64,000 nt of DNA from Flavobacterium sp. HJ-32-4 (GTDB lineage: Bacteria; Bacteroidota; Bacteroidia; Flavobacteriales; Flavobacteriaceae), in NCBI RefSeq assembly GCF_022532105.1, contig NZ_CP092832.1, forward strand, positions 3,067,001-3,131,000, read 5' to 3'. The first letter of the stretch is position 1, and each line of letters starts with the position of its first letter. The position numbers and the translations under genes are program-made. Shown piece after piece: positions 55,231 through 59,797 of the stretch. The notes beneath the pieces were generated by a model, which saw only the letters and a list, made by a program, of their open reading frames with translations, did no database searches and was not told the DNA's origin.

Positions 55231-56073
55231 CTACCCAAACACCTCCTCCACCTCTCCGTCATAACTGGCAAACACCATGGTCGGATGTGAATCGAGGTGG
55301 TACATCGCACCTTTCGCATCCAGGGCAATGGCACCGGCGAACCCGTCGAAAGGTTTGAGTTCGGAAAAGGTTTTGGTGCAGGCGTCCTGAAGGGAAAAAC
55401 CATCGGTGACGCGGGTGGCGATCTTCGCTGCAACGGCACCACTGACAATGTCTTCGCCCACGCCCGTGAGACTGACGGCACAATGCGTATTGGCATAATT
55501 ACCGGCCACGGTTGCCGAATCGGAGATACGTCCGGGAATCTCAAAGCCTTTGCCGCCTGTAGAAGTAGCCGCTGCCAGATGGCCGTTTTGATCGAGTGCG
55601 ACACATCCCACGGTACCCGTTCCGGTGGCAGCCAGCTTAGCCTCATATTCAGTACGGCGCTGTGGGATTTCCGTAGAAAATGGCTCAAATCCCTGGCTAC
55701 GGGCAAATGCTGTCGCACCCTCGCCGCCAAGCACGCGGTCGTCGACTTCCATCAATTTCAAGGCAACGGCAACCGGGTTTTTGACCTCTTCGATGTTGAT
55801 GACGCCGGAAAACTTCTGGGTGCGCCCGTCCATAATGGAAGCGCTCATCCGGATTTTCCCATCCGACTGGATCTGTGAGCCGATACCCGCATTGAACAAC
55901 GGATCGTCCTCCAACAACTGAACAGCGTATACCACTGTTTCAAGCGCAGAATGGTCGGTGAGGTAAGCATACGTGTCACGTACAATCCGTAACAACGCGT
56001 CCTGTTTGGCTTTTTTGGTTTCGGCACTGGTCGACGATTCCGAGAAGAAACCGCCGTGGATCATGACTTTCAT
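55231..56073 (-). CDS. iaaA: isoaspartyl peptidase / plant-type L-asparaginase
   Basis: 280 residues, an Ntn-hydrolase of the IaaA type. The mature beta-chain nucleophile is Thr154 in GTGTVGCVALD; ATSTGGKGFEIPGRISDSA follows and TGVGEDIVSG marks the end of the active site. The N-terminal MKVMIHGGFFS and the FNAGIGSQIQ strand are conserved. IaaA cleaves beta-Asp-Arg dipeptides, the cyanophycinase product, releasing Asp and Arg. The start overlaps the stop of cphB by one base, indicating one operon for cyanophycin breakdown. Confidence 0.95.
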   Translation of the reverse strand: MKVMIHGGFFSESSTSAETKKAKQDALLRIVRDTYAYLTDHSALETVVYAVQLLEDDPLFNAGIGSQIQSDGKIRMSASIMDGRTQKFSGVINIEEVKNPVAVALKLMEVDDRVLGGEGATAFARSQGFEPFSTEIPQRRTEYEAKLAATGTGTVGCVALDQNGHLAAATSTGGKGFEIPGRISDSATVAGNYANTHCAVSLTGVGEDIVSGAVAAKIATRVTDGFSLQDACTKTFSELKPFDGFAGAIALDAKGAMYHLDSHPTMVFASYDGEVEEVFG

Positions 56074-56945
56074 CAGACGTATTGGGAAGATTGGATATGC
56101 ATTTTGTGCGTCCGAAGGTCGTAGGTATCGTATTTACTCATCACGTGCGTAACCAGATGGTTGATCGAAATCGGTTGCCCGAGTTCGACCTGCGTAAGGT
56201 TGGTGTCTTTGATTTCACGACCGTCCACGAGAATGACAAGTCCGGAACCAATGGCCTCCATCTCCGTATTATTTCGAATGAGGAGTCCGGTATCTTCTCC
56301 CAATCCCACACCCAAAATCCTCGGATTACCGACCACCGCCTGGAACAACCGCCCGATACGGCCCCGTTGCACGAAGTGCGTATCGATGACGACACCGTCG
56401 ATCAAGCCGAGTCCGCTGGTAATCTTCACCTCTCCTTTTAGCAGCGCTTCTGAACTGCTTCCCTGGTAGATCATGCTTTGTGACGCCGCAGCAGCACCGG
56501 CGGATGTGCCGGCATAGATGAACTCTTCGTTATGGTACTTATCCAACAGCAAATCATGAAATGTCGTGCCGCCCAGGATAGACGACAGCCGAAGTTGGTC
56601 GCCACCGGTAAACATCACTACATCGGCGGCTTTCAAACGGTCGATCATCTCGCCCGACATCGCCATTTCCCGCTTGTCGAGGTGCATCACATCGACGTTG
56701 GTCGCGCCGAGATACTGCAACGCCCGCTGGTATTCAGGGCCTATTTCACGCGGTATTTTCGAGGCGGTAGTGATGACCTCAAAGCGGGATTCCTTTCCGT
56801 GTTTCGCCTCGCTCAGGATGCGTTTCAGGATGCCCGTTTCAAAAAAGTTGAGATTATTGGCGACGTTGGTATCAAAATCGGTTTCGGTAAAACTTCCTTT
56901 GTCAACTGCCCCCCCGATAATGATAAGTTTGCCTTTAATTTCCAT
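56073..56945 (-). CDS. cphB: cyanophycinase
   Basis: 290 residues of peptidase family S51. The catalytic Ser148 lies in AGTSAGAAAAS, GGDQLRL (114-120) forms the oxyanion side, and a conserved His probably lies in the IDTHFVQRGRIGRLF segment (about 205-220). It starts MEIKGKLIIIGGAVDKGS. The enzyme cuts multi-L-arginyl-poly-L-aspartate into beta-Asp-Arg dipeptides in the cytoplasm, for IaaA next door. A TATTTTTA box (complement of 56965-56972) about 20 bases upstream resembles a -7 element. Confidence 0.95.
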   Translation of the reverse strand: MEIKGKLIIIGGAVDKGSFTETDFDTNVANNLNFFETGILKRILSEAKHGKESRFEVITTASKIPREIGPEYQRALQYLGATNVDVMHLDKREMAMSGEMIDRLKAADVVMFTGGDQLRLSSILGGTTFHDLLLDKYHNEEFIYAGTSAGAAAASQSMIYQGSSSEALLKGEVKITSGLGLIDGVVIDTHFVQRGRIGRLFQAVVGNPRILGVGLGEDTGLLIRNNTEMEAIGSGLVILVDGREIKDTNLTQVELGQPISINHLVTHVMSKYDTYDLRTHKMHIQSSQYV

Positions 56946-57171: not shown

Positions 57172-59797
57172 ATGAAAATACTTAAGATTCAGGCGCTTCG
57201 CGGCCCGAACATCTGGAGCGTCCAACGCAAGAAACTCATCCAAATGCGGCTCGACCTCGAGGATATGGAGGAAAAACCGACCAATAAAATCCCTGGTTTC
57301 CGCGAACGCATCGAAGCCCTGATGCCCACACTGATCGAACACCGCTGTTCAGAAGGCGAACGCGGCGGCTTCTTCGCCCGCATCGACCGGGGCACGTGGA
57401 TGGGGCACGTAATCGAACATATCGCGCTCGAAATACAGACGCTGGCCGGCATGGAAACCGGATTCGGTCGTACGCGTGAAACCAAAACACCCGGCATCTA
57501 CAATGTGGTGTTCTCCTACACAGAAGAAAACGTCGGCCTTTTTGCGGCAGAAAGTGCCGTCCGGATTGCGGAAGCGCTCATCGAAGGTGTTCCGTATGAT
57601 TTAGACGCCGACATCCAGAAGATGCGCGAAATCCGCGAACGGGTACGGCTCGGGCCTTCCACCGGCAGTATCGTCGAAGAGGCTGTGGCCCGCGACATCC
57701 CCTGGATCCGTTTGGGCACAAATTCATTGGTACAGTTGGGATACGGTGTCAACCAGGTACGTTTCCAGGCCACCATCACCCAAAATACCAGCCATATCGC
57801 CGTTGACATCGCCTGCAATAAAGAAGAAACGAAACGGATGCTCGACCTGGCCTCCATCCCGGTTGCCAGCGGTAGTATCTGCGTAGACGAAGAAGACCTT
57901 GATACCACCATCCGCAAGATCGGTTATCCGATTGTGATCAAACCCCTTGACGGCAACCACGGAAAGGGCGCTTCGATCAACGTGACGAACTGGGAAGATG
58001 CGAAAGCAGGACTCGAGTACGCCAAAAAATACAGCCGTCGGGTCATCGTCGAAAAATTCATCACCGGCTTCGACTTTCGGGTGCTCGTTATCGACAACAA
58101 ACTCGTTGCCGCCGCCAAACGGGTACCGGCGCATGTGGTCGGCGATGGGAAAAAACGACATTGAAAAACTGATTGCGATTACGAATGAAGATCCGAGACG
58201 CGGATACGGACACGAAAACGTCCTGACCGAAATCGAAGTCGACCGCGATACCGAAGATTTGCTCGAAAAACTGGGCTACACGCTGCAGACCGTCCCGAAA
58301 GCCGGGGAAATCGTCTACCTGAAATCCACCGCCAACCTGAGTACGGGCGGCACTTCCGTGGATGTCACCGATCTCATGCACCCCGAGAACATCTTCCTTT
58401 GCGAACGGATCTCGCGCGTCATCGGTCTTGACATCTGCGGTATCGATATCATGGCGGAAAACCTCACCCAACCGCTCAAGGAAACGGGAGGCTGTATACT
58501 GGAAGTCAACGCAGCACCGGGCTTCCGGATGCACCTTGCCCCGTCGGAAGGACTTCCGCGCAACGTGGCCGCGCCGGTCATCGATATGTTGTATCCACCG
58601 GGTAAACCAAGTCGCATCCCGATTATCGCGGTGACCGGAACCAACGGAAAGACCACCACGACCCGCCTGCTCGCGCACATCGTCAAAAACAACGGTTATC
58701 GCGTCGGGTTTACGACATCGGATGGTATTTACATCCAGAACCACATGATGGAAAAAGGAGATACCACCGGACCTCTTTCCGCGGAATACATCCTGAAAGA
58801 CCCGACGGTGGAATTTGCCGTGCTGGAGACCGCACGAGGCGGCATCCTCCGCGCCGGACTTGGGTTCAGCCGTTGCGACATCGGCGTCATTACCAACATA
58901 CAGGAAGACCATTTGGGCCTTAATGATATCCATACCCTGGAGGACCTCATGCGCGTGAAGGCGACGGTGGTCAAAGCCATCAAGAAAGACGGTTGGGCCA
59001 TACTGAACGCAGAAGACGACTACTGTATGAAGATTGCAGCCGACCTGCACTGTAACGTAGCCTACTTCGCGATGGACGAGGAACATCCTGTTGCCAAACG
59101 CCTGAGTCGCGAGGGCAAGATCGTGGCCGTATATGAAAACGGTTTCATCACCATTAAGAAAGGCGAATGGAAAATCCGCGTAGAACGCGCCAGCCACGTG
59201 CCGCTGACCATGGGAGGCAAAGCCCGTTTCATGATCGCCAATGCGCTGGCCGCCACGCTGGCGTCTTATCTGTGGGGCTTTAAGACCGATGATATCAGCC
59301 TTTCACTCCAAACCTTCATCCCAAGTGTCGCGCAGACACCGGGCCGTATGAACATTTTCGAATTCAAGCGCTTCAAGGTGATGATTGACTTCGCCCACAA
59401 TCCGGCCGGTTATCGGGCAGTGGAGGAATTCATGGGCAGCGTGGAAGCCAATCGGAAAATCGGCATCATCGCCGGTGTAGGGGATCGTCGCGACGAAGAC
59501 ATCCGCGATTGCGCCACCATTGCCGCCCGTATGTTCGACCACATCATCATCCGGCAGGAAAAACACCTTCGCGGACGCACCGAAGACGAAATCAACGGAC
59601 TCATACTGGAAGGAATTGCGGCAGCGAATAAGTCGGTCACCTACGAAATCATCACCAAGGAAGTCGAAGCCATACGACATGCCATCAATTCCGCTACCGA
59701 CGGCACCTTTATCGTCGCGCTGAGCGATGTGGTTGCCAACGCCATTGAAATCGTACAGGAGTACCTCGACAAAGAAAACGAAGACGGTACGATGTAA
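57172..59797 (+). CDS. cphA: cyanophycin synthetase, frame interrupted at an A6 tract
   Basis: Two overlapping frames together encode one CphA of about 874 residues: an N-terminal part (1-326; MKILKIQALRGPNIWSVQRKK) in the frame ending 58164, and the remainder in the +1 frame to 59797. Domains: N-terminal region (1-160), ATP-grasp (about 200-460; LDGNHGKGASINVTNW, VEKFITGFDFRVLVI, CILEVNAAPGF), then a Mur ligase-like domain with P-loop GTNGKTTTTRL (near 487) and SRCDIGVITNIQEDHLGL. It polymerises Asp and Arg into cyanophycin using ATP. At 58147-58156 the sequence is GGGAAAAAAC; with five A instead of six the join reads VVGDGKNDIEKL in one frame. It could be a sequencing or assembly error, a real mutation, or frameshifting. 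Divergent from cphB. Confidence 0.92.

What the first reader, a model, noticed from the sequence alone, without database searches (positions are those of the whole stretch)
57172..59797. Cyanophycin synthetase is split by a one-base shift in an A6 tract
The frame opening at 57172 ends at 58164 just after the natural VVGDGK, while the downstream half of the same protein continues in the +1 frame (reading NDIEKLIAITNEDPRRGYG). Six A at 58150-58155 would need to be five to restore one frame. The rest of the gene is intact (P-loop, ATP-grasp and Mur motifs all present) and cphB and iaaA are intact. Options: homopolymer error in the assembly; a recent loss-of-function or phase-variable switch that turns off storage; or programmed frameshifting, which would need to be +1, not the more common -1 at A AAA AAC.
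Basis: partly seen in the sequence, partly recalled or inferred. Interest (0 to 1): 0.7.

Follow-up and report, generated by a model that had tools for sequence, protein, structure and literature searches.

The report
Split gene, probably sequencing error
A gene for making the storage polymer cyanophycin looks cut in two in this Flavobacterium-like genome, but the cut is most likely a one-letter reading error in a run of A's, because genes the cell should need are cut in the same way elsewhere in the same genome and near-identical intact copies of this gene are known from other sources.

Summary
In detail: at 57172-59797 a cyanophycin synthetase gene (cphA) is split between two frames by one surplus base at or beside A6 (58150-58155), with TGA at 58162-58164. 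The halves match TIGR02068 positions 1-325 and 326-861; the break lies inside the ATP-grasp domain. It is the genome's only cphA. Proteins with 5, 10 and 11 differences in 874 read straight through the join, and 137 of 142 loci read in one piece, so this is not conserved recoding.

The deciding evidence lies outside the window. In 1.664 Mb of the same contig (47%) eight more genes are broken by one base at a homopolymer, seven of them by a surplus base, among them the dihydroorotase (pyrC), DNA polymerase I (polA) and a DUF2520 gene found in 61 of 61 genus genomes searched. mutS and mutL are intact. Uncorrected homopolymer errors in the assembly explain this best. No reads were available; a real recent mutation of cphA is not excluded. 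Phase variation and programmed frameshifting have no positive support.

The parts
57172..58164 (+). N-terminal part of cyanophycin synthetase (N domain and first half of the ATP-grasp domain), 330 aa as read, ends in TGA
   Evidence: TIGR02068 positions 1-325 of 862; PF18921; PDB 7lg5 residues 1-333
58150..58155 (+). A6 tract; one surplus base here or in the adjoining GGG (58147-58149) relative to the reading frame of intact relatives
   Evidence: proteins P0001-P0003 read GDGKNDIEKL without a break
58162..58164 (+). premature TGA met in the upstream frame
58154..59797 (+). rest of cyanophycin synthetase in the next frame (second half of ATP-grasp, Mur-ligase middle and C-terminal domains), to TAA
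   Evidence: TIGR02068 positions 326-861; PF08245, PF02875; PDB 7lg5 residues 336-867
56073..56945 (-). cphB, cyanophycinase, intact, divergent from cphA
   Evidence: TIGR02069 223 bits, cut-off 126.6; PF03575; on the strand opposite to cphA in 61 of 80 named relative loci
55231..56073 (-). iaaA-like isoaspartyl peptidase / asparaginase-2 gene, intact
   Evidence: PF01112 264 bits; its NCBIfam match (PRK10226, 143 bits) is below that model's cut-off; a relative lies in 58 of 80 named loci

Best explanation
The split is most likely a consensus error of one base (base-calling or polishing) at a homopolymer in a single-contig assembly. The organism, a Flavobacterium-like bacterium, then carries an ordinary intact 874-residue cyanophycin synthetase which, with the divergent cyanophycinase and isoaspartyl peptidase, would make and break down cyanophycin. 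Shown here: the one-base frame break; intact near-identical proteins elsewhere; eight more single-base homopolymer breaks in the sampled 47% of the contig, some in genes the cell should not live without. Inferred: that these breaks come from sequencing and not from the DNA (no reads were available), and the activity of the proteins.
For: (1) Full-length proteins from other sources with 5 (P0001), 10 (P0002) and 11 (P0003) differences of 874, all with GDGKNDIEKL uninterrupted. (2) Of 142 loci with a strong match, 137 read as one piece; the other five are the window's own gene three times, one locus cut by its contig end (L086) and one broken elsewhere in the gene (L139 = G133). (3) In 1.664 Mb of this contig eight further genes are broken by one base at a homopolymer: a DUF2520 gene, an ABC-F ATPase gene, pyrC, polA, a menC-like gene, a cysteate-synthase-like PLP enzyme gene, a hybrid kinase/response-regulator gene and a gliding-type C-terminal domain gene. 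(4) The pyrC model hits this genome at E<=1e-40 only in two pieces (1-229, 226-444), while 58 of 61 genus genomes exceed its cut-off; polA is in two pieces (1-683, 676-890), while 58 of the 60 genomes with a match have it full length in one piece. (5) DUF2520 matches in 61 of 61 genomes; listed open frames are 252-343 aa in the others and 181 aa here. (6) mutS and mutL are intact and over their cut-offs, so a mismatch-repair mutator is not the reason. (7) The same homology test found 3 breaks in 191 kb covered here (cphA included), 0 in 133 kb of G078 and 1 in 185 kb of G073. (8) Errors of long reads are described as mainly short indels at homopolymers (PMC12007338, passages read).
Against: No reads and no second assembly of this strain were available; the collections may leave out the window's own genome. 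The sequencing technology is unknown; long reads are inferred from the single 3.53 Mb contig. Eight of the nine broken tracts are A on the sense strand, against 9310 A and 6550 T sense tracts of four or more in long ORFs: a mild excess (about 0.06 by a simple binomial reckoned by hand) that a strand-blind error would not predict; T-tract cases may have been missed by eye. Real cphA loss occurs in the genus (G027 has three in-frame stops and a frame break). The contrast is small, and one of its two controls also has a break. I did not test whether pyrC, polA or the others are essential in this organism.
Confidence: 0.92

Rival explanations
1. A real, recent one-base insertion in cphA of this strain: the cell has lost cyanophycin synthesis (plain loss of function or a reversible homopolymer switch).
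For: The sequence as given shows it. cphA is dispensable: 259 of 398 genus genomes gave no match at E<=1e-100 and G027 has a decayed copy. G133 has a one-base break near model position 663.
Against: No second lesion was seen; the two parts together differ from P0001 at 5 of 874 residues. A6 is common in coding sequence here (797 sense A6 tracts in 1,195 long ORFs), so nothing marks this tract as a switch. Other genes on the contig are broken in the same manner although the cell should need them.
Confidence: 0.06
2. Programmed +1 ribosomal frameshifting at GGG AAA AAA C makes the full protein.
For: Two breaks share the 9-mer GGAAAAAAC in the same codon phase (cphA and the DUF2520 gene).
Against: Relatives have an uninterrupted frame. 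The 9-mer occurs 102 times in the genome; 8 of 28 occurrences checked lie in a frame open for at least 250 bases on both sides, and at L200:7389 it is read straight through in the very phase seen in cphA. The other breaks include other codon phases, a missing base and a T tract.
Confidence: 0.01
3. Natural gene fission into two subunits.
For: Two ORFs of 330 and up to 599 aa exist.
Against: The break falls inside the ATP-grasp domain: GshAB (3ln7) residues 472-603 align to the N part and 607-754 to the C part. The ATG of the listed downstream ORF lies 152 bases before the tract, inside the N part. None of the 137 single-piece loci has two subunits.
Confidence: 0.005

Closest known systems
Cyanophycin synthetase CphA (TIGR02068; PDB 7lg5, 7lgj, 7lgq, 7txu, 7wac)
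   Same: Complete order of domains (Cyanophycin_syn N domain, ATP-grasp, Mur-ligase middle and C-terminal domains) once the frame break is ignored; 86-99% identity to the 120 listed hits
   Different: Reading frame broken by one base after residue 327
Homopolymer indel errors of long-read assemblies (for example PMC12007338, passages read)
   Same: Single-base frame breaks at homopolymers in unrelated genes of one assembly, needed ones included
   Different: Technology of this assembly is unknown; breaks are sparse here (nine found in 1.664 Mb) and eight of nine are surplus bases
Poly(A) slippage rescue of frameshifted genes in insect endosymbionts (recalled, no paper opened)
   Same: Frame breaks at A tracts in genes the cell needs
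   Different: Those tracts are longer, and those genomes small and AT-rich, as recalled; here tracts of 5-9 A in a 51% GC genome, and relatives are intact

Membership tests
Cyanophycin synthetase (TIGR02068) | match to the whole model above the curated cut-off (850 bits) | tested here: not met
   As encoded, two pieces of 464-466 and 787-790 bits, each below the cut-off; together they cover positions 1-861 of 862
Cyanophycin synthetase (TIGR02068) | N domain, ATP-grasp and Mur-ligase domains in order | tested here: met
   PF18921, ATP-grasp families, PF08245 and PF02875 in order across the two pieces; second half of ATP-grasp by match to GshAB
Cyanophycin synthetase (TIGR02068) | cyanophycin synthesis activity | not testable with these tools
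   no assay
Programmed ribosomal frameshift site | the break is conserved in relatives | tested here: not met
   137 of 142 loci single-piece, the other five explained; P0001-P0003 intact
Programmed ribosomal frameshift site | a fixed slippery sequence in one codon phase | tested here: not met
   phases and tract lengths differ between the broken genes; same 9-mer in the same phase is unshifted at L200:7389
Phase-variable homopolymer switch | long hypermutable tract, or both lengths seen in one population | tested here: inconclusive
   A6 only; other sources show the intact frame but none is known to be the same strain
Assembly homopolymer error | same kind of break in other genes, including ones the cell should need | tested here: met
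   pyrC, polA, DUF2520 gene and others
Assembly homopolymer error | raw reads disagree with the consensus | not testable with these tools
   no reads held

The most novel reading that the evidence does not exclude
The surplus bases are real, and this lineage restores frame genome-wide at short A tracts (slippage in transcription, or tolerant decoding), so that polA, pyrC and cphA all work although their DNA is out of frame. The excess of sense-strand A tracts (8 of 9) is the only thing that leans this way.
Probability: 0.01. Interest if true: 0.85.

Novelty: not a real feature. Interest (0 to 1): 0.1.

Why it matters
Taken at face value, this genome would be annotated as unable to make cyanophycin, and also as lacking an intact dihydroorotase and DNA polymerase I. 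Treating the break as a probable consensus error keeps a common trait of the genus (cphA matches in 139 of 398 genomes searched) on the map and warns against reading single-base homopolymer breaks in this assembly as biology.

Tried and rejected
Programmed frameshifting: rejected for lack of conservation and of a common codon phase. A motif-specific effect at GGAAAAAAC: considered after two breaks shared it; it occurs 102 times in the genome, often in open frames, and later breaks lie in other contexts. Mutator strain: mutS and mutL intact. Second cphA copy: none. Plasmid collection: no match. A first frame-shift detector recalled 54 of 120 simulated insertions, so it was rebuilt: 143 of 150, or 105 of 150 after dropping calls with a nearby ATG. 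Looser settings gave too many calls. Most calls were judged by eye to be operon junctions, and one (L274:8414) an ORF pair like that of an insertion sequence. In one search, 7 calls at stretch edges were not judged and calls whose open frames do not overlap were not shown; one search printed 155 hits, those of the 80 A-tract '-1' hits that had open frames. One search left out 61 of 80 named loci through a naming slip (L39 for L039); one search repeats it with all 80. One search read only loci with the match on the plus strand. I first took the hybrid kinase break for a surplus base (note); its phase shows a missing base.

Full report
What is there. The window is bases 3,067,001-3,131,000 of a 3,533,442-base single contig of 99.97% estimated completeness; the first 464 kb sampled have 51% GC. 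Most of the 80 named relatives found with the C-terminal part are Flavobacterium or Flavobacteriaceae, so I call the organism Flavobacterium-like; its name is not given. At 57172 an ORF of 330 aa runs to TGA at 58162-58164; the same protein goes on in the next frame from 58154 to TAA at 59797. The parts match TIGR02068 (cyanophycin synthetase) at positions 1-325 and 326-861 of 862, so one gene is broken by one base. The break lies after residue 327, inside the ATP-grasp domain: GshAB (3ln7) residues 472-603 align to the N part and 607-754 to the C part. It is the only cphA in the genome; the other 11 of 13 matches are weaker partial hits, at most 107 bits, which I take for related ATP-grasp and Mur-ligase genes. 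The divergent cyanophycinase and isoaspartyl-peptidase-like genes are intact. That arrangement is common: a cphB relative lies on the strand opposite to cphA in 61 of 80 named loci and an iaaA relative is present in 58 of 80, although some of these loci are cut short by their contigs.

Which base. Of 101 distinct relative sequences that could be read at this site, 11 have an A run of five or more, all within a continuous reading frame; the six with GGA as the glycine codon carry A6. Here the codon is GGG, so the surplus base may be a G before the tract or an A in it. DNA of the nearest relatives was not available to decide.

Relatives. Among 142 loci with a strong match, 137 give one continuous match; 61 of these show one stop only because the query carried two letters past the natural end. 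The other five are three copies of the window's own gene, one locus cut by its contig end (L086) and L139. One genome can appear among these loci through two searches, hence the smaller number of distinct sequences above. In the protein collection the eight best hits (90-99% identity) are all full length (873-874 aa); P0001, P0002 and P0003 differ from the read-through at 5, 10 and 11 of 874 residues and carry GDGKNDIEKL unbroken. So the Asp at 329, which is T, S, N or A in the 137 single-piece loci, is genuine. Searching with the truncated 330-aa product alone gave no listed hit above 90% identity (120 of 1695 listed), so no second copy of the broken version was seen there. In 398 genus genomes, 139 match at E<=1e-100 and 136 exceed the cut-off. 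So true loss of cphA happens in the genus.

Is the assembly at fault? With no reads at hand I asked whether other genes on the contig are broken in the same way. I sampled 80 stretches of 20 kb, 1.664 Mb with the window, and ran a codon-context hidden Markov scan that allows frame changes. On simulated one-base duplications it recalled 143 of 150, or 105 of 150 after dropping calls with a nearby ATG. It made 393 calls in 1.664 Mb, most of which I judged to be operon junctions on reading the translations by eye. A scan limited to homopolymers gave 236 hits, read by eye, and a homology test against relatives was made.

Besides cphA, eight genes proved to be broken by one base at a homopolymer (positions on the contig): a DUF2520 gene at an A6 (2,348,500, minus strand); an ABC-F ATPase gene at an A7 (3,375,805, minus); dihydroorotase pyrC at an A8 (1,189,205, minus); DNA polymerase I at an A5 (340,422, plus); a menC-like enolase-superfamily gene at an A7 (2,715,761, minus); a cysteate-synthase-like PLP enzyme gene at an A9 (about 2,658,680, minus); a hybrid kinase/response-regulator gene at an A7 with a missing base (2,544,487, minus); and a gene ending in a gliding-motility-type C-terminal domain at or near a T4 (2,882,687, minus). 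Family names of the last two are from my reading of the translations; no model was run on them. For pyrC, polA and the PLP gene, adjoining stretches of one model cover the two pieces (NF006688 1-225 and 230-444; TIGR00593 546-681 and 685-890; NF053679 2-58 and 62-329). The menC-like pieces match PF13378 at 2-110 and 114-205; the menC models listed stay below their cut-offs.

Why that points to error. The pyrC model hits this genome at E<=1e-40 only in these two pieces; 58 of 61 genus genomes exceed the cut-off, the two others that do not being G031 (590 contigs, pieces on two contigs) and G016 (one weaker match). polA is likewise in two pieces here; 60 of 61 genomes have a match, 58 of them full length in one piece, the other split one being G031. 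The DUF2520 gene matches in 61 of 61 genomes, with listed open frames of 252-343 aa in the others and 181 aa here. A living cell that has lost all of these at once is implausible, although I did not test whether each is essential in this organism. mutS and mutL are intact. The homology test found 3 breaks in 191 kb covered here (one of them cphA), 0 in 133 kb of the draft G078 and 1 in 185 kb of the closed G073, a small contrast. Errors of long reads are described as mainly short indels at homopolymers (PMC12007338; passages read). That this assembly is long-read is inferred from its single contig.

Why not recoding. The broken A tracts are 5-9 long and stand in different codon phases; one break is a missing base and one is at a T tract; and relatives of cphA are unbroken at this site. 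The 9-mer GGAAAAAAC, shared by the cphA and DUF2520 breaks, occurs 102 times in the genome; of 28 occurrences in 864 kb, 8 lie in a frame open for at least 250 bases on both sides, and at L200:7389 it is read straight through in the very phase seen in cphA.

Results that cut against my reading. Eight of nine tracts are A on the sense strand, while sense A and T tracts of four or more number 9310 and 6550 in long ORFs: a mild excess (about 0.06 by a simple binomial reckoned by hand) that a strand-blind error would not predict, and one that my reading by eye may have worsened. One control genome also shows a break. No read data exist here. A real mutation at cphA alone would look the same in this sequence.

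Literature. A search for papers with both 'cyanophycin synthetase' and 'frameshift' listed two, neither on this subject by title and abstract (listing only); one for 'cyanophycin' and 'Flavobacterium' listed 10 of 19 (listing only); one on homopolymer indels in long-read assemblies listed 12 of 50, of which one was opened for passages.

Noticed in passing
L157:12937 (contig 1,472,937), minus strand: A C10 tract breaks the frame of a repeat-type protein gene; a tract of this length could be a true phase-variable switch or another error.
   Followed up: partly
L274:8414 (contig 1,708,414), minus strand: Two overlapping ORFs that look like an insertion-sequence transposase pair with an A6 near the overlap; such pairs are known for programmed -1 frameshifting (recalled, no model run).
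   Followed up: no
L139:3470-3520 (genome G133): cphA of another near-closed genome (2 contigs) is broken by one base at a short A tract near model position 663; perhaps the same kind of error.
   Followed up: partly
G027:C12:39541-41831: cphA with three in-frame stops and a frame break: by its several lesions a truly decayed copy in the genus.
   Followed up: no
genus searches: Several genomes carry a second full-length cphA (for example G055, G073, G007, G065, G191, G214).
   Followed up: no
window 57172-59797, residue 329: Asp where the 137 single-piece loci have T, S, N or A; shared by P0001-P0003, so a true feature of this lineage.
   Followed up: yes
contig positions 340,422; 1,189,205; 2,348,500; 2,544,487; 2,658,680; 2,715,761; 2,882,687; 3,375,805: Eight further genes of this genome broken by one base at homopolymers; pseudogenes annotated in it should not be trusted without reads.
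   Followed up: yes
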